DNA of 64,000 nucleotides, taken from assembly GCA_003576695.1 (NCBI GenBank), contig QOZQ01000015.1:62001-126000 (forward strand), in the 5' to 3' direction. Position numbers and translations under genes: made by a program. Below the pieces are notes generated by a model that saw only the letters and a program-made list of their open reading frames with translations, did not search any database and was not told the origin of the DNA. Shown here piece after piece: positions 1-31,319 of this stretch (the stretch's first letter is position 1; each line of letters opens with the position of its first letter). This stretch comes from Taklimakanibacter lacteus. GTDB taxonomy: Bacteria > Pseudomonadota > Alphaproteobacteria > Rhizobiales > Aestuariivirgaceae.

Positions 1-829
1 AGATGGAGAGCTGGCCCTTGCGGGTCTGATCCGTTTGGGCCGGTTGCGCCGCCGGGTTGAGCCGGTCGGCCATGTCATAGGCAGTCTCGAGGCTGTCAGC
101 CATGCGCGTCGCCAGCAGGCGGCTGACGGTATCGGCGAATTCCTCGTCCTTCATACGCGGATGCGTCTCGGCAAAGGCCTTCACCTGCCGCTCGATCTCT
201 TCATTCTGGCGCGCCGCCAGGCTGGAGGTGACGCCGCCGATCTGGTTGCGCAGATCGGCAATCTCCTGGCGAATGCCGTGCAGCGGCTGGTCCGCTCCGG
301 GCTCCTTGCTGCCGCCGTCCAGAATGAGGTTTGCATAATCGGCTGGCGCAAGCCCTGCGTGGTCGAGCACAGTCTGGATGGCAAGCAGCTTTTCCTGCCG
401 GTCATCGGACAGAAGCGCCCTGTCCAGCGCCGTATAGCGCTCCATCGCCTCATGCACCGTCGTATTGTGCTGCTTCGCCAGCGCGAAATAGGGCTTCAGG
501 GGCTCGACCGTCTTGCGATATTGGGTCAGCCCCCCTTCCAGTTCGCGCAAGGCGCGATGAGTCTCCGCCCTGACTGTTTCGGGTGCGGCCTGCCACGCGG
601 CCCTGGCCTCTGCCGCAAAGCGTGCCGGCGCTTCCTCGTCCGATGGCGTTGGGCTCGCGGATGCGTCGGCCTCCCTGGCCACGGTCTCGTTTGTGCTGCC
701 GGCATCGAGCGCGGCGAAGGCGCGATCGATCGACGCGCGGGGCGCTTTCGCCGTCGCGGTTTCCTGTGCCGTCGAAACGGACACCGTCTCGCCGGTCCTG
801 TCACTTGCTTCGGCGCTGTCAGTCATCAT
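1..829 (-). CDS. Phage head scaffold-like protein (partial, C-terminus beyond left edge)
   Basis: This reading frame stays open from an ATG at 829 (or the adjacent in-frame ATG at 826) to the left edge, so about 276 residues are visible. It is acidic and Ala/Glu/Gln-rich, with a disordered N-terminal 70 residues followed by helical, coiled-coil-like segments such as GIRQEIADLRNQIGG and an E-I-E-R-Q-V-K stretch. No enzymatic motif is seen. Composition, size and position on the strand of the terminase and portal genes fit a scaffolding protein that shapes the procapsid before the coat protein, which would be expected next to the left. The assignment is inferred from architecture, not from a diagnostic motif. 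Its start overlaps the stop of a small upstream frame as ATGATGA, suggesting translational coupling. A long plus-strand frame over the same bases is a shadow. Confidence 0.6.
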   Translation of the reverse strand, partial: MMTDSAEASDRTGETVSVSTAQETATAKAPRASIDRAFAALDAGSTNETVAREADASASPTPSDEEAPARFAAEARAAWQAAPETVRAETHRALRELEGGLTQYRKTVEPLKPYFALAKQHNTTVHEAMERYTALDRALLSDDRQEKLLAIQTVLDHAGLAPADYANLILDGGSKEPGADQPLHGIRQEIADLRNQIGGVTSSLAARQNEEIERQVKAFAETHPRMKDEEFADTVSRLLATRMADSLETAYDMADRLNPAAQPAQTDQTRKGQLSI

Positions 830-1068
830 GTGATCCTCATGCGATGCATGTCCCGGCCGGCGGAACCATCTTTCAGGAAAAGCCGTTTCCCATTCGGGAG
901 AATGTTCAACTGAGAGCCGCCTGCCTCATGCTCTTCTATGTGTCTTTTGAGACGCCCGGATTCCTGGTGGCGATCCACCGGGGCGGCTGCCGTCATTGCC
1001 GGAATGGCACCGTTCAGAGCACGGCCGATGCCCGTCACCTGTCCTGGTCGCGAGTTTTCGGGAGTCAT
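826..1068 (-). CDS. Small hypothetical protein coupled to the scaffold-like gene
   Basis: An 80-residue frame (MTPENSRPGQ at the N-terminus) ends in a TGA at 828-826 that overlaps the ATG of the scaffold-like gene at 829. Such a 4-nt overlap is typical of cotranslated phage genes and is the main argument that the frame is real. AAGG lies about 7 nt before the ATG at 1068. The frame stays open to an earlier ATG at 1140, which would give 104 residues, and a later ATG at 996 would give 56. The C-terminal half is basic (RLKRHIEEHE, LPNGKRLFLK). No family was recognised. A minus-strand hairpin and T-run about 140 nt upstream suggests the transcript begins between that terminator and this gene. Confidence 0.4.
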   Translation of the reverse strand: MTPENSRPGQVTGIGRALNGAIPAMTAAAPVDRHQESGRLKRHIEEHEAGGSQLNILPNGKRLFLKDGSAGRDMHRMRIT

Positions 1069-1208
1069 GCCGAGGCCTTGCGGCATGCCCGCAATACCTA
1101 TGGCTTCTTCAGAGCGGCGGTGAACTGCAGCGACTGCCACCCGGAAGGGTCCGGGCAGGCCTGACGAGTCTTTGACTGGAGCGTTCTACGCAGTCCGGGG
1201 TATCAAAG

Positions 1209-1239
1209 AGAAAGCCCGCCCTACTGGCATAGGGCGAGC
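1209..1239 (-). terminator. Rho-independent terminator (minus strand)
   Basis: Read on the minus strand, CGCCCTA and TAGGGCG (1230-1236 and 1217-1223) form a 7-bp stem around a 6-nt loop, followed by GGGC and TTTCTCTTTG. It would stop leftward transcripts arriving from the IS remnant and the cassette before the scaffold gene. Confidence 0.5.
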
Positions 1240-1441
1240 CTCAGTACAGAGCTCGAATTTATTCCACCCGGACTCTCGCCGTCTTTTTTGCCGTCCTCAT
1301 GATTGGATATCATCCGCACACAAACTTCAATGCCCGCTGCGAAATTCAGAAACGGTGTGCTTTTCCGGCAACACACACTCTCGATGTCTTCATGGATCGG
1401 GCTTCACGGGATCGTGGGGCGGTTATTCGGCACACTGATCG
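1240..1441. other. Intergenic DNA without a recognisable gene
   Basis: No frame here has a plausible ribosome binding site or protein-like composition; short plus-strand frames have scrambled composition. The stretch lies between a minus-strand terminator and the 46-bp repeat. It contains a plus-strand run of six T (near 1284), but no strong hairpin was found before it. Confidence 0.4.
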
Positions 1442-1487
1442 ATCCTGATAATTTCCAAATCTCACGCTTGTGTCCGCAAAGTCAAGC
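1442..1487 (+). repeat. 46-bp dispersed repeat, copy 1
   Basis: This is a diverged copy of a 46-bp sequence starting ATCCTGATA and ending GTCAAGC; the other copies are at 11042-11087 and 11168-11213. By eye it differs at a few positions (ATAATTTCC for ATATTTCCC, CAAAG for CAATG). Its GTCAAGC end abuts the broken end of the IS481 transposase remnant, so the repeat seems to mark the end of something that truncated that element. Read on the minus strand the repeat begins with a TTGAC -35-like sequence. Confidence 0.75.
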
Positions 1488-1497
1488 GCGCCGTGAT

Positions 1498-1970
1498 GGC
1501 GTGCGATCAATGGCGACATACAGGTACAGCTTACCTTCGGCGGTCTGAACCTCAGCGATGTCGATGTGGAAGTAGCCGACTGGATAGCTCTTGAGCTTCT
1601 TCTTTTAGCTTGTCGCCTTCGATGTCAGGCAACCGTCCGATCCCGTGACGCTGCAGGCAGCGATGCAATGAAGATCGTGTCAGGTGCGGAACGGTCGGCT
1701 GCAAGGCGTAGAGGCAATCGTCCCGAGGCAGGAGCGTGTGTTTGCGGAACGCGACGATGATCGCCTCCTCCTTGATCGACGGCACGGTCGACCTCGGTTC
1801 TTTCGGGCCAGTCGGCACATCGGTGACCGAAGTCCGGCTCTTCCACTTCGCCACCGTCTTCTGGTTGATGCCGTAGCGCTTGGCGAGCCGCCTCAGGCTC
1901 TCTTGGCTATTTTGTATTGCCGACGGATCGCCTCTGTCGTGGTGGCGCTCCCGTGAAGAACCTAGCCCAT
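1498..1970 (-). pseudogene. IS481-family transposase, N-terminal part, multiply disrupted
   Basis: The recognisable protein runs from ATG at 1970 (MG-stop-VLHGSATTTEAIRR) through IQNSQESLRRLAKRYGINQK and KTVAKWKSRT, an HTH of the IS481/IS3 type, and LTRSSLHRCLQRHGI to a piece of the DDE catalytic domain (YFHIDIAEVQTAEGKLYL, with the first catalytic Asp in HIDIAEV). Damage seen: the third codon is TAG at 1964-1962 where Gln is expected, the frame slips after AIRR, it slips again after EGDK, and sequence is lost after VAIDRT. The remaining DDE residues and C-terminus are absent. The longest intact frame (1552-2010) is an artefact of this damage and starts upstream of the native start. Confidence 0.8.
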
Positions 1971-2025
1971 GGCACTTCCTTTGATTCGTGCGACAATAGT
2001 GCACCACCAAAGTGCGGGTTCAACA
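1498..2025 (-). mobile_element. IS481-family insertion sequence remnant
   Basis: One end is preserved: read on the minus strand it begins TGTTGAACCCGCAC at 2025, followed by a short leader and the transposase start at 1970. The other end is missing, because homology to the transposase stops near 1498 where sequence adjoining the 46-bp repeat begins. The intact terminus lies one base beyond the stop codon (2027-2029) of the neighbouring cassette gene, so the element inserted exactly at the 3' end of that gene. The coding part carries a nonsense codon and two frameshifts, so the element cannot move on its own. Confidence 0.75.
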
Positions 2026-2026
2026 C

Positions 2027-2533
2027 CTAGGCGTAAATCTCATCAATGGATCTCAAGCGCTCGAAGAGCTTCAGTAATAGCTTTTGAATGCGCAGGGCCT
2101 CCGCACTGCTTATACACGCACTAGCAATGCCCGTTGCGTGGGCCTCGTTGGTCAGGTCGCCCGCATTACGGACTGGGTCGTCGAAGACGCAGAGCGACTG
2201 GGCTCCTGTATCAGCATCCACAATCTCTCGGACTTTCTCAGCCGTGCTGATCGCAACGCCTGCCACCGTTCTATCTTGAAGCGTGTCGCTTATAGCCCTT
2301 GCCAGTCGATACATCTCGTCTTTTCCAAGATGGGTCTGGCGGATCAGAGATACGCCCTTTCGCTCGATGTCGCTTGGAGCAATTAAGCTGGCGCGCAGTG
2401 TGCCGTCTTTCCTGACGTGGGTTGGCGAGCAGACGACTTTAACCAAGACTTCCGCGTCAGCAAGAGGTCCGCACTCTCCGAGAGAGGCCGCCTCGCATGA
2501 ACAGAGCCCCACTGCCGTCACAAATGATCTCAA
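2027..2533 (-). CDS. Uncharacterised protein, third gene of the TIGR04255-type cassette
   Basis: A 168-residue protein starts at TTG (2533), which overlaps the stop of the preceding gene as TTGA. It resembles, from memory, small proteins with an acidic -LADAEVL- segment, a -H-x4-DGTLRASLI- stretch and a mixed alpha/beta body that often lie beside TIGR04255-like genes; this is pattern recognition, not a search result. Cys residues cluster at the N-terminus (CSCEAASLGEC), and the C-terminus is helical. No catalytic motif was recognised. The gene ends one base before an IS481 terminus, so its native C-terminus may have been trimmed. Base composition looks more A/T-rich than that of the phage structural genes. 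Translational coupling implies it acts together with the two genes upstream. Confidence 0.6.
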   Translation of the reverse strand: MRSFVTAVGLCSCEAASLGECGPLADAEVLVKVVCSPTHVRKDGTLRASLIAPSDIERKGVSLIRQTHLGKDEMYRLARAISDTLQDRTVAGVAISTAEKVREIVDADTGAQSLCVFDDPVRNAGDLTNEAHATGIASACISSAEALRIQKLLLKLFERLRSIDEIYA

Positions 2534-3096
2534 GCTTCGATTGTGGTCAACAAATCTGCAGGAAGCGACTGACCGTCAAAGAGAGCGACCCCTTTTACAG
2601 GGGACTCCATACAGTCGCACTCGCCGTAATACACAAGTCGCCCGTCCCCCGGCAAGTGCACTGTGATGTATTTGTCGCTGGTCTGCCAATTCCATCCGGC
2701 TGTACCATCCGCAAATGCGAGGGCTTCTGGCGCCGCGACTTCAGCCGGCAGTAGCTTCAAAAATGTCAAAGCATCGATGAGCGAGGCTTCCGAAAGCGGC
2801 TTGCTTCCGGGCCCATCCCATCCCTCCTTCAGTTCGGCAAAGCTCAGCATTTCCAAGAACGCCTCGTGCATCGAAACAGGAAGCGCCCGTGGGACGGTCA
2901 CCTCAGCAATCGACTGGCTTATAGCTGGGTTCAGCGGGTTGGCGATAGTTTCGCTGGTGTAACTGGTCGTCAACGCCAATGCGCCCGCAGCCAGCGTCGT
3001 GACGAAATAGGTGACGATCTGCGGCGGGCTGGGCGGAGGCGCAGTGTAGTCGGCGCCCAAAGTCTCGGTCTTGAAACTAGTTTCGGCAAAGTTCAT
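2530..3096 (-). CDS. Membrane-anchored GWDG-motif protein, second gene of the cassette
   Basis: 188 residues. A short N-terminal region with a proline run (PPPSPP, residues 20-25) is followed by one predicted membrane helix at about 28-46 (VTYFVTTLAAGALAL). The soluble part has EGWDG at 91-95 followed by GSKPLSE, an arrangement seen in a family of small proteins associated with restriction or conflict loci, and a C-terminal beta-rich stretch (WNWQTSDKYITVHLPGDG, 135-152). The start ATG at 3096 overlaps the upstream stop as ATGA, and the stop overlaps the next start as TTGA. No catalytic residues could be assigned. The membrane helix suggests the partner complex is tethered to the inner membrane. 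Function is unknown. Confidence 0.65.
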   Translation of the reverse strand: MNFAETSFKTETLGADYTAPPPSPPQIVTYFVTTLAAGALALTTSYTSETIANPLNPAISQSIAEVTVPRALPVSMHEAFLEMLSFAELKEGWDGPGSKPLSEASLIDALTFLKLLPAEVAAPEALAFADGTAGWNWQTSDKYITVHLPGDGRLVYYGECDCMESPVKGVALFDGQSLPADLLTTIEA

Positions 3097-3902
3097 GTTA
3101 GGCCAATGTCCTTTGCGAGTTCAGGTGTTAGATAATCACGAAGGATGCGCTTGTCCATATCGTGCAGGAACTCGAAAATGGGACCTAGTCTATCCTTCTT
3201 TTCCTTAAGACTCCCCCTCACGATCATCGGATCTGCGAAGTCCAGGTTAAGATAGCTGTCGATCTTGACGAAGGTGCTTGGCTGACGAGATGTGCCGGCG
3301 TCCAAGTGGATTCGCTGCAACAGCCTACCTTTGACCGGCAGGCCATCCTCAATATATCGCCCCTGATGAAGATGCCAGGCCGTGCCAGATTGGAACACGC
3401 TAGCAGGGACATAGGGACTTCCACGCCGCAGCAGCTTGTCGACCGAATAGTCCTTCTGGTTGCCTAGCCACTCAAACACGTCCACATATTGCAGAAATGC
3501 GCCCTTGATCGGGTTGTTTCTGCTCTGAAGCGCCTCACTCGCCCTTTCGAAATAATCCCAGGCCTTAGGCCAGACTTCGCTCCAGCTAACATAATCGAGA
3601 CAGTTAACGATTATTTTTGCTTCATCGAGTCGGAGGCGCCAGCCTAGCTTGCCATCTGGCTTGACCCGGTCGAATGACACCCCGGCCACGAGCGGCGGCA
3701 TTGATGCTTGGTCGGGTAGCGGCCCCTCCCCCATCTGGACTTGCAAAACCTGTGTTCGATTGAGCCGGGGCAGCTCCGGCCATTGCTGCTGATGAACGGC
3801 AACGGCGGCCTCGATCTCCTTGGCCGTGAACTGGCGCGCATAGAGCAAGCCGAAGACCGCCTCGATAATGGCGTGCTTTTCCGTCGCCGGTTTGAAGGTC
3901 AC
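3093..3902 (-). CDS. TIGR04255 family protein, first gene of the cassette
   Basis: The preferred start is GTG at 3902 with GGGAG 7 nt upstream, giving 269 residues. An upstream ATG at 3989 would add a low-complexity, Arg/Pro-rich extension unlike the family. The N-terminal KHAIIEAVFGL matches the characteristic opening of TIGR04255 proteins (usually -P-ii-E-v-f-). Later landmarks are the mid-protein -DYVSWSEVWPKAWDYFER-, a second half of similar alpha+beta build (TFVKIDSYLNLDF) and an acidic helix near the C-terminus (LGPIFEFLHDMDKRIL). TIGR04255 proteins are about 230-280 residues, occur sporadically and have no established biochemical role. It overlaps the next gene by 4 nt and lies among phage structural genes on the same strand, which fits a moron or defence cargo; that role is inference. 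Confidence 0.8.
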   Translation of the reverse strand: MTFKPATEKHAIIEAVFGLLYARQFTAKEIEAAVAVHQQQWPELPRLNRTQVLQVQMGEGPLPDQASMPPLVAGVSFDRVKPDGKLGWRLRLDEAKIIVNCLDYVSWSEVWPKAWDYFERASEALQSRNNPIKGAFLQYVDVFEWLGNQKDYSVDKLLRRGSPYVPASVFQSGTAWHLHQGRYIEDGLPVKGRLLQRIHLDAGTSRQPSTFVKIDSYLNLDFADPMIVRGSLKEKKDRLGPIFEFLHDMDKRILRDYLTPELAKDIGLT

Positions 3903-4412
3903 ATGGAATCTCCCAGAGGATTTCTTATCAACCCCAATCCGGGGCGGCAATAGGCCCGGACCTCTGCTGCTTCGCGGCCCGGCCGCCAATGGTCCTCCCT
4001 ATTCTTCCGGCTCCGACCGGAATCAGGGTTTGGTCATCACCTTCGGCTCGGGCCACGGTCTCGTAGCCTAACCCCCGCACCGCCACCGCTGTCGGGATGA
4101 GGACTATCGGCGATACCAGCCGGAACGAATTTCCGATCAAGCGTCTGGATGCGTAGATTAAGGATCCGAGAAGCGGGAAGCCAAGGCTTGACTCCCGGGC
4201 CGATTGTTCTCACAATGTTCTTGCGGCCAGCCATGATGACGCATGGGTTCTGCTCGATGAATAAGAGGTGAAAAGCAACATCACGATCATCTTGGCGGCG
4301 CACGGTTAGAAGTTCCTCCCAGCTTCGCGGGAAGACCGTTCGGCCCGATCGGCGCGAAGCTCGCCGTCATGGCTTGCGAAAAAAAAGCAAATGAGCGGCC
4401 CACGCGGAAATT
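3903..4412. other. Gap between the cassette and the phage tail-side genes; doubtful 88-residue frame
   Basis: No recognised gene. A minus-strand frame from GTG at 4303 to 4037 (88 residues, MRRQDDRDVAFHLLF at the start) has GGGAGGA about 12 nt upstream but resembles no family known to me, and its C-terminus is Gly/Arg-rich; I rate it a doubtful gene. A perfect 9-bp inverted repeat, AGCTTCGCG at 4321-4329 and CGCGAAGCT at 4353-4361, sits upstream of it. Read leftward, eight T at 4385-4378 follow the end of the 4413-4697 gene, but the hairpin before them is weak. A cassette promoter would be expected in 3903-4030. Confidence 0.35.
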
Positions 4413-4697
4413 TCAGACGAATCCGGCTCGCGCAAAGGCCCGCTCAACCGAGTTCCGCACGTCCTTGCGAAAGGATTCTGGCTTGCGGGCCCTGCGCTGG
4501 AGGGCGGGATCATTGCCGACTTCCGTCACGCCGGCAGCTCGGTAGGTCGCCCGCAAGGCGGCCTTGCTGTCATAGACCTTGCCGTCGAGCATCGACTGGA
4601 CAGGCGCCATGCCGTCCCTGATCACCGCTGGGCAAGCCAGTGATGCGCGCCTGTGGCGGGCCGGGGCGACCCCGTGGGAAATGCGATGGACGATCAT
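4413..4697 (-). CDS. Small phage protein, downstream of the alanine-rich repeat protein
   Basis: 94 residues from ATG 4697. The upstream part of the same frame (to 4838) overlaps the preceding gene and has a poor composition, so the later ATG is preferred; GGGG lies about 12 nt before it. The body PVQSMLDGKVYDSKAALR followed by TYRAAGVTEVGND is a pattern I associate with short proteins near the head genes of alphaproteobacterial podovirus-like prophages, where residues around -MLDGK-YDSK- are strongly conserved. The C-terminus is basic (RRARKPESFRKDVRNSVE), compatible with nucleic acid or capsid contacts. Role unknown. It is the last phage gene before the cassette insertion. Confidence 0.6.
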   Translation of the reverse strand: MIVHRISHGVAPARHRRASLACPAVIRDGMAPVQSMLDGKVYDSKAALRATYRAAGVTEVGNDPALQRRARKPESFRKDVRNSVERAFARAGFV

Positions 4698-4719
4698 GTG
4701 GCGGGTGGCCCCTGCAAAC

Positions 4720-5427
4720 TTACGCGGCAAGCAGCAGCACGGCGATCGCCTCATCCCGCGCATGCTGCTCACGCGCCGCGGCAATGGCCATCGCGCGCTC
4801 GAAGTCCTTCCGGTCGGCCTTCCGCGAAAGGACAACACGAATGCGGCTCAGATCCGACGGCGGCAGTTCCGCTCGCGTGACCGGGTCGATCTCGCCACCG
4901 GCGATCCGCCAGGCCTCGTCGATGATCCGGCGAAGATCATCTCTCCAGCGCTTCTCGCGCTCATGGCGCTTCCAGTCGCCGTCACCTCCTTTTCGATAGG
5001 GTAGCGGGACACGACCCATGAAAGTCTGGGCGATGACCGTGTCATCGAGCTCGATGAGCGCGGCTCCAGCCGTGATCGCAACGGCGCCGGCGCCCGCCGA
5101 AGCGTCGTCGGCCTCGGCAATCGCCGCCGAACCCGCCAGCGCGATGGCTCCGGCCGAAACCGGCATGTCCGCCGCTTCGATCAATGAGGCATGGATCTGG
5201 ACAGGTAATCTGGCCTGACCATCCAGCGCATCGGCCGCTTCGGCTTGTGAAAGCGTTGCCTTGATCGCAGGCGTCGCGCTTGCCGTCAGGATGTCCGCCA
5301 CGTCCGTGACGCCGGCCTGGGCTATGATGCCAAGCTTGGCTGAACTGTTCGCCGTGTCATTTGCCTCGGCGACCACGGCGTTGCCGATGATCACATCGGC
5401 GGAGTTGTAAAGGAGGAGCAAGCTCAC
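4720..5427 (-). CDS. Phage structural protein with alanine-rich repeat segment
   Basis: 235 residues from GTG 5427, which overlaps the previous stop as GTGA. Residues about 5-140 form degenerate units of roughly 20-25 residues built on a small-residue/acidic pattern, for example SAAIAEADDASAGAGAVAI and GAALIELDDTVIA, with older units degraded (GNAVVAEANDTAN). Such repeats recur in phage tail or neck proteins and are likely beta-stranded. The C-terminal 95 residues are charged and helical (WKRHEREKRWRDDLRRI), ending in an Ala-rich helix. It lies in a compact run of overlapping structural genes downstream of the portal gene. A role as fibre, neck or decoration protein is inferred. Confidence 0.6.
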   Translation of the reverse strand: MSLLLLYNSADVIIGNAVVAEANDTANSSAKLGIIAQAGVTDVADILTASATPAIKATLSQAEAADALDGQARLPVQIHASLIEAADMPVSAGAIALAGSAAIAEADDASAGAGAVAITAGAALIELDDTVIAQTFMGRVPLPYRKGGDGDWKRHEREKRWRDDLRRIIDEAWRIAGGEIDPVTRAELPPSDLSRIRVVLSRKADRKDFERAMAIAAAREQHARDEAIAVLLLAA

Positions 5428-6125
5428 GGATTGAAACTCCACGTCCCGGCAATGGCGCCGCTCGAGCCTGACCATGACAGGGTGACCGAGGGTGTCACCG
5501 ATACCGGCTCGATGCGCCGCCACCAGGAGACGAACTGATCGGTGGTCCCTGCCCCGGCAAGGTTTCCGGCTGCCACATCTGCTCCGGAAACGCTGTTGAG
5601 ATTGGCGTTGGTGTGGCCGCCCATTCCCAGCATGAACCCGCCCGGATTGATGGTGCAGGCGTTGAGGTTGAGCGACGTGCTGAATGCACTCGATGCCGTA
5701 TCCGAGTCCGTTTCGCCCTCCCCGTATTTCACCCGGCCCACCACCCTGAACACCGAGGCTATCACATAGTCTGCGACCGAGCCGCTGAACGTCATGCTCA
5801 GAAAGCCGTGCTGCAGCTTGTCCGGTGCCGGGAACATGATCGCCTGCAATCTGGTGCCGCCGATGGTGGTTCCAGTCTGCAAGCTGCCGGCAAACAGGCC
5901 GGAAATGCTCGCGGCCGTTATGCTGCGCGACGTGCTGACACCATTCTTGATGTCGACTGTGACGATTATTTCACGGCTTCGGTGCGGCTTGCCCAGCAGG
6001 ATCGGTATTGATACGGCCGATGCTCCGGCGATATCGACGCTGACAAAGCCCATGTGCTGCAGTTTCGGCCCCTCGGCCCAGGCGCTGGAGCGCCGCGTCT
6101 TGTAGCGAAAAACCGGTAGGCCCAT
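5424..6125 (-). CDS. Phage structural protein, beta-rich, unknown role
   Basis: 233 residues, rich in Ser, Thr, Gly and Val with alternating hydrophobic residues, as expected of a beta-sandwich virion protein. The N-terminus PVFRYKTRRSS is followed by segments such as AASISGLFAGSLQTGTTIGG and the glycine-rich GGFMLGMGGHTNANLNS. No enzyme motif is visible. The C-terminal SVTLSWSGSSGAIAGTWSF resembles a receptor-binding or tail-associated fold. It overlaps the next gene by 4 nt and starts 12 nt after the upstream one, so it is part of the same late operon. Possible roles are head decoration or tail fibre; sequence alone does not decide. Confidence 0.55.
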   Translation of the reverse strand: MGLPVFRYKTRRSSAWAEGPKLQHMGFVSVDIAGASAVSIPILLGKPHRSREIIVTVDIKNGVSTSRSITAASISGLFAGSLQTGTTIGGTRLQAIMFPAPDKLQHGFLSMTFSGSVADYVIASVFRVVGRVKYGEGETDSDTASSAFSTSLNLNACTINPGGFMLGMGGHTNANLNSVSGADVAAGNLAGAGTTDQFVSWWRRIEPVSVTPSVTLSWSGSSGAIAGTWSFNP

Positions 6126-6137
6126 GCCGCCCCCCCG

Positions 6138-6785
6138 CTACTGCCGGATGGCCTTGACGATGACGGTGACAACCTCGCCCGAGGCGGGCACATAGGCGTT
6201 CTTCACACGCATCAGGAACCGCAGATCTGCCGAGCCGACGCAGGTGTAGTTTATGGCGAGGCCCGAAGCATGCGCGAAATCGTTGTTCCCCATATCCTCG
6301 AGCGCCAGCCCTATTTTTCCGAGACAGGTCTTGATCTCGGCATCGGACACCGCGAATGCCGCATTGTCGTTGATGGCGGTGACGGCCTGGTTGAAGAAGA
6401 CGACCTCGCATTGCAGCGGCGTGGCGGGATCGTTGCTCGAAGTGACGATCACATCGGTGATGATACCCGAGCCGCCGGAGACCTTGGCCATGCTCGCGAG
6501 AGTGAAGCCGCCGGCCGTCGGGCCCGAGGTGGAATCGGCCAATGCGTCATTGACGGCATAAGCGGTCGTGTCGGCCGGTCGCGTGATATCCACCTGAACC
6601 GCAATCTGGTCGTCACTGGGTCCCACCACCGGCACCGAGCTTGCGGATGTGGCCTGGCCGCTCACGAGGGGCGCCGAGAGACCGTCGCCACCAAGGTCAA
6701 GCTTGACCTTCTGGAACTGGACGCCGCTGACCTCGTCGGAGGCGATGACAGAACCGGCGCCGGGCAAAGACACATTGTCGGCCAT
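6138..6785 (-). CDS. Phage structural protein, unknown role
   Basis: 215 residues. The body is Asp/Thr/Val/Ala-rich and predicted mostly beta. The stretch VQVDITRPADTTAYAVNDAL followed by Gly/Thr-rich residues and SMAKVSGGSGIITDVIVTSS is a pattern I associate with uncharacterised virion proteins of alphaproteobacterial phages. Near the C-terminus -FLMRVKNAYVPASGEVV- recalls head or neck proteins of that group. Its ATG at 6785 overlaps the upstream stop by one base (TGATG), indicating coupled translation. Assigned as structural from composition and position only. Confidence 0.6.
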   Translation of the reverse strand: MADNVSLPGAGSVIASDEVSGVQFQKVKLDLGGDGLSAPLVSGQATSASSVPVVGPSDDQIAVQVDITRPADTTAYAVNDALADSTSGPTAGGFTLASMAKVSGGSGIITDVIVTSSNDPATPLQCEVVFFNQAVTAINDNAAFAVSDAEIKTCLGKIGLALEDMGNNDFAHASGLAINYTCVGSADLRFLMRVKNAYVPASGEVVTVIVKAIRQ

Positions 6786-7192
6786 CAGGCATTCCCCGCT
6801 GTCAGGGAGAAGGTCGTCACGGTGAAGCTTTGGCCCGTGGCGAAGGACGTGTTGTCGACCGTCATGTCGCCGCCGCCGCCATTCAGCGTGACCGTTCCTT
6901 GCATGTGGCAGGTTGCGCCGGCCGAATCATAGATGCGGAAATGGCCGGCCGTGCCGGTTGCATTGGCGCTCAGATCCTCCCAGGTGCCGTTCTTGGCTTT
7001 CGACCCGGCGCTCGCGGCCAGCATCCAGTCGGACGGCAGGACGCATTCGGCGAGGATGGTGCCGCTATCGGCCGTGGCGCATGTCGCCGGCGGGGCGCCC
7101 GTCCGCATACGCAGAATGGGACCTGTGCCGATGGTCGTTTCGACCACATCGAGCTTGGCATTCCTGACTTCTGTCGAATATTGCAGCGTCAT
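6785..7192 (-). CDS. Phage structural protein, unknown role
   Basis: 135 residues beginning MTLQYSTEVRNAKLDVVE. The segment GTGPILRMRTGAPPATCATA followed by ADSGTILAE matches a small protein type that I associate with the position next to the portal gene in rhizobial prophages. Composition is Gly/Thr/Ala-rich and beta-prone; two Cys (in PATCATA and AECVLP) and a third in ATCHMQG are notable. It starts one base after the portal stop codon. Role unknown; position suggests a head-completion or decoration protein. Confidence 0.6.
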   Translation of the reverse strand: MTLQYSTEVRNAKLDVVETTIGTGPILRMRTGAPPATCATADSGTILAECVLPSDWMLAASAGSKAKNGTWEDLSANATGTAGHFRIYDSAGATCHMQGTVTLNGGGGDMTVDNTSFATGQSFTVTTFSLTAGNA

Positions 7193-7193
7193 C

Positions 7194-9332
7194 TCAATTC
7201 ACCATCGTGGGTTCTGTCAGATAGATTCGGCCTTCGGGCGTTGTCACTTTCTTCGGCGCCGCCAGGACGCGGGCGATCAGTTCCATGCTGCGCAACGCCT
7301 GTTCGTTCTGCCGGGACAGGAGCTCAACGATCTCGGTCATCGAATAGGCCGGCGGCTCGCCCTGCGCCATTGCCAGCGCATCGCCTTCGAGGCGGGCTTT
7401 GCGGATCTCGCGCTCATGCAGCTTGTTCACCTCGTCCTGCTTCACCGCCACTTCGGCCTCATGCTTCTTCGCATCGAACTGAAGCTTTTTCTCCTCGAGC
7501 TGGAGCTTCATCTGGTCGGGGCTTGGTCCGGGATTCGCCAGGCGTTGCTCGGCCTCGCGGCGCACCGTCTCGGCGAACTCGTCGATCGAGCCTTCGAAGG
7601 ATCGTCCGGCCCGGAATGGCGCTATGGCGAATTTCAGGACCTCGATCGCAAAGGACGCCGATGACGGCTGCTGCGCCACCATGGGCGTCAGTTGCTGGAT
7701 CGCCATGCTGAGCGCGCCCAGGAATTCGGTGCGGCGCTGCTTCTCGGCATTCTCGTCGGCATGAATGGTCGAATCGGTCTCGATTTCCAGGATGAAAGGC
7801 CGCAGCCGCTGTTCCCGCAGCAAGGCCACGGCTTTTTCGAGCGTCACCGTCGCTGCCAGCGACGACAACCGCGTTTCCGTCTTCTGCCTGGCATCGGCAA
7901 GCCCCTCTGGCGAGGGGCCATCCGGTTCCGCCGTTTCGGCAAGCTGCAGCGCTTGCAGCCGCAATACCCTGATCTCACCGGCAACTGCGTCCTCGCGCGG
8001 CAGGTCCATCTGCGCGATCTCGGCGAACAGGTCGGGCGTATAGTTCTCGGCAATGATCTCGGCCGAGATGCGGGTGATGTCGCGGGCGATCCTGACAAGC
8101 TCCGCCTGGCGGTCGCGGATGCGAACCGAACCATACTGGCTCTTCAGCTCTTGCGCCGCCGCCGTCTCTGCAGGATCCGTGGCGCCGCGCATGATGTCGG
8201 ACAGGCCGGTGATCTGGTAGACATCCTCGATAAGCTGGCGGCGCAGGAACACCAGTTCCTTGATCGTCGCGGCGATCTCTGCGACGGGCAGCCAGATGAT
8301 GCTGTCGCGCAGCGCCGTGCCGCCCAGCGCGGCAAAATTCGAGACCGGCACCAGGATGGCGTTGCGGTCGTTCTGCCGGACCGCCGTCTCGACGGCTTCC
8401 GCCAGGTCGCCGGCGCCCGCCGGATAGAATCCCTTCATGCGCAGGCCCTCGGACAAGGCCGAGATGCGGGCCGTGAGCTCGTTGATCTCCTCGAGCTGAT
8501 CCTTGTAATAGACGAAGTCCGGGACCGGGATCAGCCGGCGGCGCTCGGTCGTCGCATAGGCCGGCCGCGGGCACGGGAAGAACGTCTCGAGCTTCAGGAA
8601 GGGCTCGCGAATGTCGAGCACGTCCTCAAGGCCCGGCGCCACCCAGACCACGACGCCGCTTCTGCGGCTCCAGATTTCCCACACTTCGGCTTTCTTCTCG
8701 CCGGCATAACCGCCATGGCCGGAATCGCCCAGAAGGTCGCGGCGGCTCTTGAGCTCGACCTCAATGAAACGATCACCAAAACGCTTGATGCCTTCGCTGC
8801 GCGTCAGCCACGCTCTTTTGGCCACCCAGCCCACTTCCTGCCATTTGCGCGCCGGCTCGTGCAGGAAATCGGCACGGTCCACATGCTCGATGAGGTTGCG
8901 CAGCCGGCCATCCACCTCCTCGAGCCTGACCCATGCGGCTCCCCTGCCATTGGTGGCCAGGTCGTCACGGATCTGCAGCATCACGGCATTGATGTCGGCT
9001 TCCTCGAAAGTGAGGACAAGCGTGCGCTCGAGCAGTTCCGAGGCCTTGCGCGGCAGGTCCTTCATGGTGCGGAAGCGCGGCACGACGACCGGCGCGGGTG
9101 GACGTGCATAGATCGACGGCTTCAGGATTTCGAGATTGGCCCAGAACATCTGGTATTCGCGGTCGGTGCTTTCTTCCGACAAGGTCTTGAGATCGGCATA
9201 GAGCTTGTCGATGCGGTCCGATTTCTCCTGCCACAGCTGGAAATACTTCTGCGCGTCGGTGATCGCATCGAGCCAGGGACGCGCCTGCCGGGGCAGCTCC
9301 CCTTTGGCTTCCTCATTCGGATCTTCGGTCAT
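7194..9332 (-). CDS. Phage portal protein (P22-like)
   Basis: 712 residues, the usual size for P22-type portals. The portal forms the dodecameric ring at the capsid vertex through which DNA is packaged. N-terminal helices (PWLDAITDAQKYFQLWQEK) and MFWANLEILKPSIYARPP are characteristic. The middle (about 80-420) holds the wing and stem, with LTRSEGIKRFGDRFIEVELK. The last 200 residues are strongly helical with coiled coil (QMKLQLEEKKLQFDAKKHEA), as in P22-like barrel extensions. It abuts the terminase gene (stop 9333, start 9332), the canonical packaging order. Two long plus-strand frames in the same stretch are antisense shadows. Confidence 0.88.
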   Translation of the reverse strand: MTEDPNEEAKGELPRQARPWLDAITDAQKYFQLWQEKSDRIDKLYADLKTLSEESTDREYQMFWANLEILKPSIYARPPAPVVVPRFRTMKDLPRKASELLERTLVLTFEEADINAVMLQIRDDLATNGRGAAWVRLEEVDGRLRNLIEHVDRADFLHEPARKWQEVGWVAKRAWLTRSEGIKRFGDRFIEVELKSRRDLLGDSGHGGYAGEKKAEVWEIWSRRSGVVVWVAPGLEDVLDIREPFLKLETFFPCPRPAYATTERRRLIPVPDFVYYKDQLEEINELTARISALSEGLRMKGFYPAGAGDLAEAVETAVRQNDRNAILVPVSNFAALGGTALRDSIIWLPVAEIAATIKELVFLRRQLIEDVYQITGLSDIMRGATDPAETAAAQELKSQYGSVRIRDRQAELVRIARDITRISAEIIAENYTPDLFAEIAQMDLPREDAVAGEIRVLRLQALQLAETAEPDGPSPEGLADARQKTETRLSSLAATVTLEKAVALLREQRLRPFILEIETDSTIHADENAEKQRRTEFLGALSMAIQQLTPMVAQQPSSASFAIEVLKFAIAPFRAGRSFEGSIDEFAETVRREAEQRLANPGPSPDQMKLQLEEKKLQFDAKKHEAEVAVKQDEVNKLHEREIRKARLEGDALAMAQGEPPAYSMTEIVELLSRQNEQALRSMELIARVLAAPKKVTTPEGRIYLTEPTMVN

Positions 9333-10706
9333 TCAGAGCTTGATCCTCCTGCCCCCTGGCCGGTCGACCGGTGGTCCCGGCAGGAAAACTGTGCCGCGCG
9401 GCCACGCCGGCTTTGCTTGAACCGGCTTCGGGGCAATCAGGGCGCAGTTGACGGCATATTCGCCAAAGGCATCGGAGCCATGGCTGTTGATATCATGCAG
9501 CGGACCGGCGAAGCCGCCGATCAGGGTGCTGTGCTTGCGCGCATAGCGCCTGAGCCGCGACAGCCCGAGCATGACGCGCGGCGTCCGGTTGAAGCGCATC
9601 AGCGGCAGCAGGATCCGCGTCGCGTTGATGCGCTCCACCGGCCCTTGCTGGGCGCCGACACGGATCGGCTTCACGCCAAGCCCCATCAGGGTCAACGCCC
9701 GCGTCCGGCCGCCGGCGCCCCATTCGCGCAATTTCACGTCATGCGGCAGGAAATGCGCGCCATAGCGAAAGGGGTGTCTTCGCCCCAGCGCCGCAAGGCC
9801 CGCCGAAATCCGCAGCGGATCGGGCTGTAGCTCCGGCAGGGCCTCGGACACGATCTCCTCGGCCCCCTGCCCGCTTGTCTCGTGATAGTCGAGCGCCGTG
9901 GCGATCACGCCGTCATCCTGGATGAACCAGATGGCGGTATAATCGTCTATGCCGATGTCCCAGGCGGTATTCACCACGCGGTTCCCGTCATGCGGGAAGT
10001 CGCCGATGCGGCCCTGCTTCTCGGCATCGGCAATGAGGCGCGCATAATAGGACGCCTCGCTGAAGATCTCATAGCCGCCGCCCCAGACATGCTCGGCCAT
10101 TTCCGGATTGGCGGCATAGTCGGAGTCCTTCTCGTGCAGCAGCACCTCGGGAAACCACGGATTGTCGAGCCAGCTGACCGCGACGAGCACCGCGTCATCG
10201 CGCGGCTTGCCGCCCCTGAAGAACTGATCGACGGCGTCGGTCTCGTGGCGCGGGTTCCAGCTGAACCACAATTCCGAGCCGGGCTTGCGGATGGTCGGCC
10301 GCAGCAGCCGCAGGGAGACATCGGAAAGGCACTGCGCCTCCTCCACCCAGGCGATGTCATAGTCTTCCAGCGACTTGATGTTCTCGGCATTGAAGGCCTG
10401 CATGCCCTTGAAGATGATATGCGAGCCGTTGCGCCCGCGGATCTCCGCATCGAGGATGGTGAACTGCGCCCCTAGATCCAGCTGCATGATCTTGTTGACG
10501 ATGAGCTGGCGTACCGACTCCTTGATGGAATTCTGGACTTCCCGGATGCAGACCACGCGCGTGGCCTGGCCCATGCAGCGAAGGACCACCTGCTCGGCAA
10601 AGAAATGAGACTTGGCCGCGCCGCGTCCCCCATAGGCGCCCTTGTAACGCTTCGGCGCCAGCAAAGGCTGGAAAGCGCGCGGCACATCGCTAGGCAGGAT
10701 CAACAA
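9333..10706 (-). CDS. Phage terminase large subunit
   Basis: 457 residues. The ATPase domain has a Walker A-like motif GGRGAAKSHF (about 26-35), IREVQNSIKESV after the first strand, and a Walker B with catalytic Glu in YDIAWVEEAQ (about 115-125), followed by a coupling motif near LWFSWNPRHETD. The nuclease half begins around NTAWDIGIDDYTAIWFIQ, which supplies acidic metal ligands. This is the PBSX/Terminase_3-like group that pumps and cuts concatemeric DNA at the portal. Length is normal and no frame break is seen. It overlaps the small upstream gene by 17 nt and abuts the portal gene downstream. Confidence 0.92.
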   Translation of the reverse strand: MLILPSDVPRAFQPLLAPKRYKGAYGGRGAAKSHFFAEQVVLRCMGQATRVVCIREVQNSIKESVRQLIVNKIMQLDLGAQFTILDAEIRGRNGSHIIFKGMQAFNAENIKSLEDYDIAWVEEAQCLSDVSLRLLRPTIRKPGSELWFSWNPRHETDAVDQFFRGGKPRDDAVLVAVSWLDNPWFPEVLLHEKDSDYAANPEMAEHVWGGGYEIFSEASYYARLIADAEKQGRIGDFPHDGNRVVNTAWDIGIDDYTAIWFIQDDGVIATALDYHETSGQGAEEIVSEALPELQPDPLRISAGLAALGRRHPFRYGAHFLPHDVKLREWGAGGRTRALTLMGLGVKPIRVGAQQGPVERINATRILLPLMRFNRTPRVMLGLSRLRRYARKHSTLIGGFAGPLHDINSHGSDAFGEYAVNCALIAPKPVQAKPAWPRGTVFLPGPPVDRPGGRRIKL

Positions 10707-10950
10707 TGCGATATTCGATCAGGGCCTTGCTGACCTCTTCGGTTTCCTTCTCCGGCTTGTTGGCGACGACGACGGTCGAGAGGTCCGGCAGCACCTTCTT
10801 CAGGAGGCCGAGCGCCGCCCTGACCTGGGTATAGGACATATATCGCTTGCCAAGCGCATGCTCGACCAGGGCTTCGACGATCCCGCTCGCCATGATCTTG
10901 GCGCGCTCCACGCCATAGAGGTCCACGGTGACTTCGTGTTTCTTGGTCAT
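10690..10950 (-). CDS. Small terminase-associated phage protein (candidate small terminase subunit)
   Basis: 86 residues from ATG 10950 (MTKKHEVTVDLYG). An earlier in-frame start at 11058 would run through the terminator hairpin and is rejected. The helical core ERAKIMASGIVEALVEHALG and TQVRAALGLLKKVLPDLS is conserved, as I recall, in a short protein directly upstream of large terminases of rhizobial phages. It is shorter than classical TerS proteins and lacks an obvious HTH, so the small-subunit role is inferred from position. It heads the leftward packaging operon and overlaps terL by 17 nt. Confidence 0.65.
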   Translation of the reverse strand: MTKKHEVTVDLYGVERAKIMASGIVEALVEHALGKRYMSYTQVRAALGLLKKVLPDLSTVVVANKPEKETEEVSKALIEYRIVDPA

Positions 10951-28334: not shown

Positions 28335-31319
28335 GTGCTGCGCATCGCTGCGACCGCATTCTTCATTTTTGTCGTTCCATTGCAGGCTTTCGCCGAAAAG
28401 CGCGTCGCGCTGGTCATGGGCGCGGACGACTACAAGACCATCCGCCCGCTCGGCAATGCCGTCAATGATGCGCTTGCCATCGAGAAAACTCTGGAAGCGC
28501 TCGGCTTCGAAGTCACGCTCGAATCGAACCGCGATTTGAAGCGCATGCGCCGGGCGCTCGAGGATTTCCGCGAGGATGCCGCGGGCGCCGATGTGGCGCT
28601 GGTCTTCTTTGCCGGCCATGGCGTCGAGATCGGCGGGCAGAACTTCCTGCTGCCCATCGATGCCAAGGCGGAAACCGCCGATCTCCTCAAATCCTCGGCC
28701 CTGCCGCTCGATGAGGTGCGCGCCACCATCGCCGAGATCGGCAAGGTCGGGCTCATCATGCTCGACGCCTGCCGCAACGACCCCTTCGGCGGTCTGGGCG
28801 GTGACGGATCGAGCCGCGGCGCCAGCGTGGTCGAAGAGCCCGGTGCGCCGCTCGACATCAGGCCTGGTCTCGGACGCATGGGCCGCGCCGAAAATGTGCT
28901 CTTCGCTTTCTCGGCGGCGCCCGGCGAGACGGCTTCCGACGGCAAGGGGCCCAATTCTCCCTTCACGACGGCGCTTGCCAAATATCTCGCGACCGATGGC
29001 ATCGAGATCCGTTCCGCCCTCACGCTCGTCCAGCAGGAAGTCTACGACCAGTCGCGCGGCGGCCAGCTTCCCTATATCGAAAACGGCTTGCCCAAATTGT
29101 TCTTCGCCGCAACGACGGTCGACAAGCTGCCGGAGCGCGAGCGTCTGCTGCTCGCTATGGCGGATGTCACGCCGGATCTGCGCGAGGAGGTCGAGCGGCT
29201 GGCCAAGGAGAAGGACATGCCGCTGGCGCCGCTCTATGGCGCCTTGATCTCCTCCGATGCCAAGGATCTGACGCTCGAGCAGCGCACCAGGAAGCTCGCC
29301 GATGCGGCCGAGGCCTTCGTGACGACCCGCAACCAGATGCGCACGCTGGCCTCCACCGATCCCGCCGTCACGAAGCTCAGGCAGGAGGCGGAACAGCAGC
29401 TGGCGCTCGGCGCCTTCGATACCGCACGCGGCAAGCTCACGGAGGCGGCTTCCATCGATTCGAGCTCGCGCGACGCGCTCAAGGCGAATTTCCTCGAGCG
29501 CACATTGTCGGAGGCGGCCACGCATTCGATCAGCGGCGGCGCTTCGCGCGCCGACCTTAATTACGATCTCGCCATTGTGAGCTATGAGCAGGCCGCCGCG
29601 CTCTATAGCGAGATTGCGGGCGAGAAGCTGCCGGATGACCAACGTGAAGGACAGTTCCAGGCCTTGGCCGCATTGGGCGATCTCTATGTGACGGTCGGCG
29701 ACCTGGCCAAGGCCCGCAAGGCTCTCGAAACCGGGCAGGCTGTCGCAACGGATATGATGGAAGCCGAGCCCGGCAATGGAGCCTGGAAGGATAGGCTCGC
29801 TTCCGGCACGCTCAAACTCGGCGACGTGCTGCGCGATCAGGGCGATTCGAAAGGCGCCCTTGCCGCTTATGAGAGTGGACTCGGCTTGCGCAAGGAGCTT
29901 GCCACGGCCGATGCCGATGATGGCGCCGCGCAGGGTCTCGAGGCTGCGGCCTATCTCAAGGTCGGCGCCTTGCACAAGCTGCAGGGCAATCCGGATCAAG
30001 CGCTCGCTTCCTATGAAGCGAGCCGCGGCATCGTCGAGAAGCTGGTCGGGCGCGATGCCGCCAATGACGACTGGCAGGTGACACTGGCCAGCAGCCATCG
30101 GCTGATCGGCGAAATCCAGCAGGACGGCAAGAAGCTCGCCGAGGCCCGCGCGTCCTATCAGGCCAGCCTCGACATCGCCAGGAAACTTGCCGAAGCCAGG
30201 CCCGATGACCCGTTGCGGCAGTTCGATCTCGCCAGCGCCTATGAGGCCATGGGATCGATCCAGTTCGACCAGGCAGGCGCCTTCCAGAAATATGACGAGG
30301 CGGGCGGCGAACCGGCCCTGGCCTCGCTCGAAGCCTCGGCTTCCATCATCAAGCGCCTCGTTGCGGCCGATCCCAGGAACACCGCCTGGCAGCGGGGTCT
30401 TGCCGGCGTGCTGGAGAAGATCGGCGAGACGACCTATTTCGGCGACAATGTCATCACCAAGGAGGACGCCGAAAAATCGCTCGCCGCCTATACAGCGGCC
30501 AATGATATCCGGTTGAAGCTGGTCGATTCCGACCCGGCGAACAAGGTCTGGGTCGCAGACCTGGTGACCTCCTTCGAGAAGATGGCCACCTGGTACGAAT
30601 TCGTCCCCGACGACGTGACCGCCATCGGCTACAGCAAGAAGGCGCATGAGGCGGTGCTCAAGCTTGCCGCTCTCGATACGGAGAATGTCGCCTGGCAGCG
30701 CAATGCCACGCTCTATCACGCCAAGCTGGCGGGATCCTATGTTCAGCTGAAGGACTATGCGAATGCGCTGGCCTATGACCAGGCCGGTCTGGATTACGCG
30801 ATCAAGGTGGCCGACGCTCATCCCGACAAGCAGGTCTATCAGAGCGATGTCATCATCTTCCATGGCCGGGTCGCGTTCGACAAGACCAAGGTCGATGACT
30901 GGAAGGGCTTCTTCGCTCAGAACGACCTGAAGCTCGAAGCGGCCAAGACTTTCAACAAGCGCTTCCCGGACAATCCCGCCAGCCTGCGCGACCTGTACCA
31001 GTCCTATATGGATGTTGGTGACACCTATACGAAGAATTTCCCGGACGATGCGCTCAAGCTTTTCGAGGCGGCGCGCAACGCCGCGCAGAAAGCGGCCGGG
31101 CTGGAGCCCAAGAATCCGGAGAACTTCTATAACGTCTACCAGACCCAGGTTAAGAGCGGCTATGTGCTGGAGGAACAAGGCAACAAGGCTGGCGCATTGA
31201 AGGTCTATGAGACAGCTCTTGCGGAGATTGAGAAAGCCGTTGCTCTTCAGCCGGACAAGATCGCCTTCACCGCGAGCAAGGATCATGTGCTGGCGCGCAT
31301 CGCCGGCCTTCGCAACTAG
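28335..31319 (+). CDS. Secreted caspase-family (C14) protein with tetratricopeptide repeats
   Basis: 994 residues from GTG 28335, with GGGAGG 6 nt upstream; this start puts a signal peptide (IAATAFFIFVVPLQAFA) at the N-terminus, unlike the ATG at 28293. The caspase-like domain (about 19-250) has EKRVALVMGADDYKTI, the catalytic His in FFAGHGVEIGG (H95) and Cys in LDACRNDPF (C146), plus a C-terminal part with NSPFTTALAKYLAT. From about 330 to the end there is a long array of TPR-like helical repeats (AYESGLGLRKELATAD, SYEASRGIVEKLVG). Metacaspase-like proteases cut after basic residues; the repeats probably bind partners or regulate it. Target unknown. Confidence 0.85.
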   Translation: MLRIAATAFFIFVVPLQAFAEKRVALVMGADDYKTIRPLGNAVNDALAIEKTLEALGFEVTLESNRDLKRMRRALEDFREDAAGADVALVFFAGHGVEIGGQNFLLPIDAKAETADLLKSSALPLDEVRATIAEIGKVGLIMLDACRNDPFGGLGGDGSSRGASVVEEPGAPLDIRPGLGRMGRAENVLFAFSAAPGETASDGKGPNSPFTTALAKYLATDGIEIRSALTLVQQEVYDQSRGGQLPYIENGLPKLFFAATTVDKLPERERLLLAMADVTPDLREEVERLAKEKDMPLAPLYGALISSDAKDLTLEQRTRKLADAAEAFVTTRNQMRTLASTDPAVTKLRQEAEQQLALGAFDTARGKLTEAASIDSSSRDALKANFLERTLSEAATHSISGGASRADLNYDLAIVSYEQAAALYSEIAGEKLPDDQREGQFQALAALGDLYVTVGDLAKARKALETGQAVATDMMEAEPGNGAWKDRLASGTLKLGDVLRDQGDSKGALAAYESGLGLRKELATADADDGAAQGLEAAAYLKVGALHKLQGNPDQALASYEASRGIVEKLVGRDAANDDWQVTLASSHRLIGEIQQDGKKLAEARASYQASLDIARKLAEARPDDPLRQFDLASAYEAMGSIQFDQAGAFQKYDEAGGEPALASLEASASIIKRLVAADPRNTAWQRGLAGVLEKIGETTYFGDNVITKEDAEKSLAAYTAANDIRLKLVDSDPANKVWVADLVTSFEKMATWYEFVPDDVTAIGYSKKAHEAVLKLAALDTENVAWQRNATLYHAKLAGSYVQLKDYANALAYDQAGLDYAIKVADAHPDKQVYQSDVIIFHGRVAFDKTKVDDWKGFFAQNDLKLEAAKTFNKRFPDNPASLRDLYQSYMDVGDTYTKNFPDDALKLFEAARNAAQKAAGLEPKNPENFYNVYQTQVKSGYVLEEQGNKAGALKVYETALAEIEKAVALQPDKIAFTASKDHVLARIAGLRN

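What the first reader, a model, noticed from the sequence alone, without database searches (positions are those of the whole stretch)
2027..3902. Three-gene overlapping cassette with a TIGR04255-like protein inside a prophage block
Seen: three minus-strand genes overlap by 4 nt each (ATGA at 3093-3096, TTGA at 2530-2533), giving a tightly coupled unit. The first resembles the TIGR04255 family, the second has a Pro run, one membrane helix and an EGWDG motif, and the third is a small Cys-containing protein. They lie between phage head and tail-side genes on the same strand and look more A/T-rich by eye. Known: TIGR04255 proteins are sporadic and uncharacterised. Inference: a moron or anti-phage/superinfection-exclusion cargo in which a soluble sensor signals to a membrane partner.
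Basis: partly seen in the sequence, partly recalled or inferred. Interest (0 to 1): 0.78.

Follow-up and report, generated by a model that had tools for sequence, protein, structure and literature searches.

The report
Mobile three-gene cassette in a prophage
A compact three-gene unit of unknown function has been inserted between two structural genes of an integrated bacterial virus; the same trio recurs on chromosomes, other phage-like elements and a plasmid, so it is an independent travelling module, plausibly a defence or toxin-type system.

Summary
In detail: three minus-strand genes overlap by 4 nt at each junction. A is a full-length TIGR04255 protein (40.9 bits, cut-off 30), B has a GWDG motif, C is small with Cys. 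The trio is not a phage core set. It lies in a 3.58-kb segment (830-4412, with an IS481 remnant) of a prophage head operon; the closest relative, L066, has 30 bp there, and 0 of 80 related contigs, many partial, carry it. A second trio sits in the same genome with no phage genes seen nearby. Trios in the same order recur in Pseudomonadota, beside an integrase (L047), beside phage-like genes (L045) and on a Mycobacterium plasmid (L049). In 376 genomes, 9 of 10 places matching a C profile adjoin A and B (7 of the 10 were its seeds); the tenth is at a contig end. Predicted A (pLDDT 86) resembles TATA-binding-protein-like folds; B and C match no named family. Best reading: a horizontally mobile accessory module, probably a tripartite defence or toxin-type system with A+B controlling C. 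Module status is well supported; function is inferred. A membrane-partner role for B is weakly supported.

The parts
3093..3902 (-). Gene A: TIGR04255 family protein, predicted TBP-like (two-fold beta-alpha-beta) fold
   Evidence: NCBIfam TIGR04255.1 40.9 bits over cut-off 30; AlphaFold2 pLDDT 86.0, pTM 0.84; Foldseek
2530..3096 (-). Gene B: GWDG-motif protein with Pro run and a borderline hydrophobic segment in its variable N-terminal part
   Evidence: No Pfam, NCBIfam or PHROG match; weak match to the C-terminal part of PADLOC PDC-M32A, E 8.7e-4; same family follows A elsewhere
2027..2533 (-). Gene C: small CxCE protein of a family with conserved S62, R102 and H132; proposed effector (inference)
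   Evidence: No match in Pfam, NCBIfam, PADLOC or PHROGs; conserved columns in 16 homologues; 9 of 10 genomic places of the family adjoin A and B
830..4412 (.). Extra segment (3583 bp) in the head operon, holding the trio and an IS481 remnant
   Evidence: Phage relative L066 has 30 bp between the homologous flanking genes
1500..2030 (-). IS481-family remnant whose homology to another copy begins at the CTAG that contains the stop codon of gene C
   Evidence: NF033577 1e-20, partial; 530-bp match at 78.5% in S. meliloti pSymA starting at CTAG
4413..4838 (-). Small phage gene upstream of the insert; its homologue in L066 directly precedes the scaffold gene
   Evidence: 40% identity over 109 aa, E 4e-21
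1..829 (-). 5' part of the scaffold-like virion protein gene, downstream flank of the insert (continues left of the window)
   Evidence: phrog_25516 virion structural protein
4720..10950 (-). Prophage head and packaging genes: TerL 9333-10685, portal 7194-9332, phrog_3758 at 6785-7192, and others without a named function
   Evidence: PHROGs

Best explanation
A self-contained, horizontally mobile three-gene accessory module (TIGR04255 protein A, GWDG protein B, small protein C) has been dropped as cargo into the head operon of a prophage. Shown here: the extra segment against a phage relative, the recurrence of the trio in fixed order, and its presence on different element types. Inferred: the three translationally coupled proteins form one complex; A, with a TBP/helix-grip-like fold, senses a nucleic acid or small ligand; B is an adaptor that ties A to C; and C, whose conserved Ser, Arg and His suggest an enzyme, is an effector held in check until infection or element loss releases it, so that the module works as an abortive-infection or toxin-type defence.
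For: Extra segment against L066 and absence from related contigs; low G+C. Unit inheritance: pairwise distances of A, B and C across 16 loci correlate (r 0.63, 0.70, 0.80; 0 of 5000 permutations reach them). Co-occurrence: C-profile scan of 376 genomes, 9 of 10 places beside A and B, 7 of the 10 being seeds of the profile; PDC-M32A profile scan of 385 genomes, 4 of 5 places beside A; B of the window as sole query, the 4 best of 8 places (the window among them) beside A; 4 of 4 loci fetched by A have the full trio. Mobility: beside an integrase (L047), beside phage-like genes (L045), on a Mycobacterium plasmid beside mobF, second chromosomal copy. Defence neighbourhood in 2 of 13 loci looked at: L153 near Z1/DUF4420/AIPR genes, L160 near an AAA_15 ATPase. 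A Vibrio plasmid TIGR04255 gene is followed by an uncharacterised gene and a zeta toxin gene.
Against: No member has a tested function known to me, and the searches for TIGR04255 in the paper library found nothing. None of A, B and C of the window matches a named defence protein over its full length. Most of the chromosomal copies read lie among ordinary genes, and no control set was scanned for enrichment. The C model is poor (pLDDT 56) with no structural match at E <= 0.001. The Vibrio zeta gene and its upstream gene are 107 bp away from TIGR04255 and may be an independent pair. TIGR04255 often has other partners: only 10 of 24 places in the class sample have a B match next door and 8 of 24 a C match; of 5 other genomes with window-type A, 3 have B and C and 2 do not; of 4 plasmid TIGR04255 genes, 1 has B and C. 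The interval between portal and scaffold varies among relatives, from about 0.4 kb (L075) to 5.7 kb (L094).
Confidence: 0.5

Rival explanations
1. A three-component toxin-antitoxin or addiction module that keeps the carrying element (prophage, plasmid) in the cell, with defence at most a side effect.
For: Small overlapping genes; presence on a plasmid beside mobilisation genes and next to phage-like genes; zeta toxin gene downstream of another TIGR04255 gene.
Against: Several copies sit in chromosomes with no mobile element recognised around them by reading; no known toxin or antitoxin family in the window trio.
Confidence: 0.22
2. A regulator: A binds DNA through a TBP-like fold and, with B and C, controls expression of the carrying element or of host genes.
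For: TBP hits for the A model; a TIGR04255 locus with an HTH gene in second place (L012, HTH_3 2.5e-5).
Against: Trios occur away from mobile elements too; TM-scores are low and the best PDB hit is S-adenosylmethionine decarboxylase/prozyme, so DNA binding does not follow from the fold.
Confidence: 0.12
3. Superinfection exclusion through a membrane-anchored B.
For: Hydrophobic stretch in B of the window, L045 and L047, three copies in or beside phage-like elements.
Against: Borderline hydropathy, and low in nine of 13 B proteins.
Confidence: 0.08
4. Fixed core phage morphogenesis genes.
For: Same strand and position inside the head operon.
Against: 0 of 80 related phage contigs carry them, 32 of which show the scaffold gene and 47 the major head protein; a second trio and others lie outside phages.
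Confidence: 0.01
5. A passive passenger brought in with an IS element, with no function in this prophage.
For: IS481 remnant abuts gene C.
Against: Three intact reading frames with conserved columns; the IS481 homology begins in the CTAG at the end of C, as if the IS had landed beside an existing trio. I noticed no IS beside other trios by reading but did not search for one.
Confidence: 0.07

Closest known systems
TIGR04255 family (NCBIfam, sporadTIGR04255)
   Same: Gene A is a member above the curated cut-off over the full profile
   Different: No paper in the library searched holds the name; here it is tied to two partner families and given a predicted fold
PADLOC PDC-M32 (phage defence candidate)
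   Same: B of several trios matches the C-terminal third of PDC-M32A (9.1e-8 in L030, 1.5e-7 in L001, 8.7e-4 in the window)
   Different: PDC-M32A is about 375 positions long and B matches only about 250-370; no PDC-M32B match; a candidate only
TATA-binding-protein-like (helix-grip) folds
   Same: Predicted A is two strand-helix-strands-helix halves; Foldseek finds yeast TBP (probability 0.82), a 178-residue chain of a human Pol III complex that I take to be TBP (0.91), and viral TBPs
   Different: No significant sequence match in the PDB, low TM-scores, and S-adenosylmethionine decarboxylase/prozyme ranks first
Phage morons and prophage-borne defence cargo (kind recalled)
   Same: Extra genes of different base composition between conserved phage genes, absent from the relatives examined
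   Different: This module is also found off phages, and its activity is untested

Membership tests
TIGR04255 (NCBIfam) | Score over the curated cut-off | tested here: met
   40.9 bits against 30, E 2.1e-10
TIGR04255 (NCBIfam) | Full-length match | tested here: met
   Residues 8-266 of 269 to profile 3-251 of 252
PADLOC PDC-M32 | Full-length PDC-M32A | tested here: not met
   Window B matches only profile 253-335 of 375, E 8.7e-4
PADLOC PDC-M32 | PDC-M32B partner | tested here: not met
   No PDC-M32B match among the three window proteins or the three of L001, at E up to 1
Moron (features recalled) | Flanking phage genes adjacent in relatives lacking the insert | tested here: met
   30 bp in L066 against 3583 bp here; 0 of 80 contigs with the trio, many of them partial. 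The portal-scaffold interval varies in other relatives
Moron (features recalled) | Distinct base composition | tested here: met
   G+C 0.560 against 0.635
Moron (features recalled) | Own promoter and terminator, expressed in the lysogen | tested here: inconclusive
   Promoter scan near chance (2 found, 1.2 expected); terminator scan 6 found, 3.9 expected, with one 14-pair hairpin at 1242-1211; expression not testable
TBP-like fold | Duplicated beta-alpha-beta(4)-alpha arrangement | tested here: inconclusive
   Secondary structure order fits roughly; Foldseek TBP hits with high probability but low TM-score
Toxin-antitoxin or abortive-infection system | One component toxic, another neutralising or phage-triggered | not testable with these tools
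   Needs expression and phage challenge
Superinfection-exclusion membrane protein | Conserved membrane segment | tested here: not met
   2 of 13 B proteins pass 1.6, one of them inside the conserved domain; the window's own B scores 1.49

The most novel reading that the evidence does not exclude
A phylum-crossing, previously unnamed tripartite immune or abortive-infection module in which a bacterial TBP-fold protein (TIGR04255) is the trigger-sensing hub, a GWDG adaptor couples it to the third gene, and the partner genes are exchangeable (C family, zeta kinase, HTH protein and others), so that TIGR04255 marks a whole class of modular systems.
Probability: 0.35. Interest if true: 0.82.

Novelty: new variant of a known kind. 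Interest (0 to 1): 0.58.

Why it matters
TIGR04255 is a named but unexplained bacterial family. Tying it to two recurring partner families, a predicted fold and a record of presence on phage-like elements, a plasmid and chromosomes turns an orphan into a defined three-gene system that can be cloned and tested in one experiment. If it proves to be a defence or toxin system, TIGR04255 becomes a searchable marker for a family of modules that the defence catalogue used here (PADLOC 2.0.0) did not recognise in the window.

Tried and rejected
Core phage genes: rejected on 0 of 80 related contigs. Close relatives by single-protein scans: none in genome contigs for B or in viral contigs for B, A and C; none of A or B in plasmids (C was not searched there). 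L047's A had no match in the plasmid or phage collections; L016's A had none in phages. The L001-type A alignment found nothing in viral contigs. B of the window was found in 1 of 69 genomes of its family, the window's own. Known structures by sequence: no significant match for A or C profiles. A HEPN resemblance of the third gene in L041, read by eye, was not supported by Pfam and is dropped. An empty site for the second copy could not be shown: in the 3 same-genus genomes that have the flanking gene, homology ends about 230 bp before the trio and does not resume on the other side within 20 kb in a way that marks an empty site. Five more TIGR04255 loci (L014, L016, L017, L020, L022) have genes of similar size and order, but these did not reach E 1e-3 against B or C and are not counted. 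Four weak B hits (L006-L009) are not next to A; I listed the ORFs of L008 only, and the profiles found none of A, B or C in any of the four. The PADLOC scan of flanks used 123 of the 132 ORFs listed (nine that looked antisense or spurious were dropped by eye); it printed 25 of 124 matching families without naming the member, had no control set, and its top hits (UvrD-type helicase to GajB) may be housekeeping genes, so no enrichment is claimed.

Full report
Observation. Three open reading frames on the minus strand lie at 3093-3902, 2530-3096 and 2027-2533 and overlap by 4 nt at each junction, as described. Gene A matches TIGR04255 over its full length (40.9 bits, cut-off 30). B and C match nothing in Pfam, NCBIfam or PHROGs at E up to 0.1. 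The trio is A/T-richer (G+C 0.560) than the phage genes beside it (0.635).

Surroundings. The trio is inside a prophage. Upstream on the same strand are a terminase large subunit, a portal and other head genes; downstream are a scaffold-like virion protein, the major head protein and, about 18 kb on, an amidase. A scan for the portal found 185 related viral contigs, of which the tool kept 80, each cut to at most 10 kb either side. TerL was found in 70, the major head protein in 47 and the scaffold in 32 of the 80, and none of the three trio proteins in any; profiles of A, B and C found nothing at E up to 10 in 6846 frames of those contigs. In the contig with the best match, L066 (portal 60% identical), the homologue of the small gene at 4413-4838 (40% identity, E 4e-21) ends 30 bp before the scaffold start; in the window the same interval is 830-4412, 3583 bp. 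In other relatives the distance from portal to scaffold varies from about 0.4 kb (L075) to 5.7 kb (L094); what fills it there was not examined. The segment in the window holds the trio and a 530-bp IS481 remnant. Homology to an S. meliloti copy begins at a CTAG that contains the stop codon of C; IS481 is known to favour CTAG targets (recalled), so the IS probably landed beside an existing trio.

Recurrence. The same genome has a second complete trio at G000:C1 389988-391724, G+C 0.549 against 0.616 in the left flank, with no phage genes that I could recognise within 10 kb by reading, lying where homology to 3 same-genus genomes ends. TIGR04255 was found in 20 of 385 genomes of the class, 24 places (the first look missed the window's own copy). 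A profile of 13 C proteins, searched without regard to A, hit 10 places in 9 of 376 genomes; 9 of 10 are next to A and B, and the tenth is cut by a contig end. Seven of the 10 places were seeds of that profile; of the three that were not, two adjoin A and B. B of the window as sole query gave 8 places in 385 genomes at E up to 0.01: the window and L003, L004, L005 lie beside A; four weaker ones do not. A PADLOC profile of a B-like domain gave 5 places in 385 genomes, 4 beside A. In 2397 frames from the window and the (partly overlapping) loci then held, B and C matched only frames in TIGR04255 operons, apart from L037, where B and C follow another first gene. Iterated profiles put B beside 10 and C beside 8 of the 24 TIGR04255 places; five of those ten B places and three of those eight C places were not seeds. 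A profile of window-type A hit 6 of 378 genomes of the phylum: the window, three with B and C (L039, L042, L043) and two with other partners (L040, L041). All four loci found by A in genome and viral contigs (L044-L047) carry the whole trio. Distances of A, B and C over 16 loci correlate (r 0.63 to 0.80, 0 of 5000 permutations as high), as expected of a unit inherited together, although shared host descent contributes. In the 13 loci, A and B overlap or lie within 2 nt of each other in every one.

Mobility and hosts. The trio stands next to a tyrosine integrase in a viral contig (L047); next to phage-like genes in Rhizobium ecuadorense (major head protein, excisionase-like and primase-like matches; L045); and next to a MobF relaxase and near a conjugative DNA transfer gene on a Mycobacterium paragordonae plasmid. 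Three further plasmid TIGR04255 genes (Crinalium, Vibrio, Thermus) lack B and C. L042 (G500) carries the trio in another class of the same phylum. Others lie between genes that read as ordinary chromosomal genes. One of the 13 loci (L153) has AIPR, DUF4420 and Z1 genes starting about 0.5 kb away; the PADLOC scan of 123 flanking ORFs lists MzaC at 7.3e-87, which I assign to that Z1 gene, the table not naming the member. Another (L160) has an AAA_15 ATPase about 1.4 kb away. Because the genome of L039 is listed in the same order as the window and L039 encodes the same proteins as L045, the window probably belongs to the order of Rhizobium.

Proteins. The predicted structure of A is good (pLDDT 86.0, pTM 0.84, five sequences): a strand-helix-strands-helix unit, then a second one with a shortened first helix. 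Foldseek gives S-adenosylmethionine decarboxylase/prozyme first (E 1.1e-5), then a 178-residue chain of a human RNA polymerase III complex, presumably TBP (E 2.1e-3, probability 0.91), and yeast TBP (2.7e-3, 0.82); among viral models several named TATA-binding proteins appear. Bet v 1/PYL-type folds also appear, with low probability. TM-scores are low, so the fold assignment is a lead. TBP-like domains exist in bacteria, for example the RNase H3 N-domain (PMC4132731; start of abstract in a search listing). B varies in its N-terminal part and keeps Trp93, Asp94 and Gly95 of GWDG in 13 of 16 homologues each, and Gly131 and Trp137 in 15 of 16. C keeps Ser62 in 14, Arg102 in 15 and His132 in 16 of 16, and Arg at position 32 in 13 (Lys in the window), which I read as a possible active site; its model is poor (pLDDT 56) and has no structural match at E <= 0.001.

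Variants. Other TIGR04255 loci have different partners: an HTH gene in second place (L012), further unnamed pairs (L010, L011), and, on a Vibrio plasmid, an uncharacterised gene followed by a zeta toxin gene (Pfam Zeta_toxin 3.1e-12). The last two may be an independent pair, since 107 bp separate them from TIGR04255.

Mechanism. Shown: the extra segment, recurrence, order, co-inheritance, presence on several element types. Inferred: complex formation from translational coupling, sensing by A, adaptor role of B, enzymatic effector role of C, and a defence or toxin-type function. I give about 0.9 to 'independent mobile three-gene module' and about 0.5 to the full statement.

Known or new. Two full-text searches of the paper library found no paper with the name TIGR04255. 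The nearest catalogue entry, PADLOC PDC-M32A, shares only a B-like C-terminal domain; one paper reports PDC-M32 hits in Sinorhizobium prophages (PMC12429752, passages read). I judge it a new variant of a known kind: a module of the accessory, defence-or-toxin type for which I found no description.

Noticed in passing
window 1242-1211 (-): A terminator-like hairpin of 14 pairs lies between the IS481 remnant and the scaffold gene, so the insert may cut transcription of the downstream head genes.
   Followed up: no
window 4720-5523 and L066 5568-6422: A phage head-operon protein that by eye is made of degenerate repeats of the type EANDTLSATAxLxIKG; function unknown.
   Followed up: no
L012, L013, L029: A different recurring set: TIGR04255, a gene of similar size (HTH by Pfam in L012), and a gene with a SQTCDIxR-type motif by eye; possibly a second modular system built on TIGR04255.
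   Followed up: partly
L037 1025-2420: B-like and C-like genes preceded by a 134-aa gene without a Pfam match instead of TIGR04255, suggesting that the first gene can be exchanged too.
   Followed up: partly
L153 11390-16423: Z1, DUF4420 and AIPR genes near a trio; the two AIPR matches lie in separate reading frames.
   Followed up: partly
L052 2875-8019: On a Thermus plasmid TIGR04255 lies near a CopG/VapC pair, a DNA methylase and cas6.
   Followed up: no
window 28335-31319: A 994-aa protein that by eye begins like a caspase-type peptidase; not tested.
   Followed up: no
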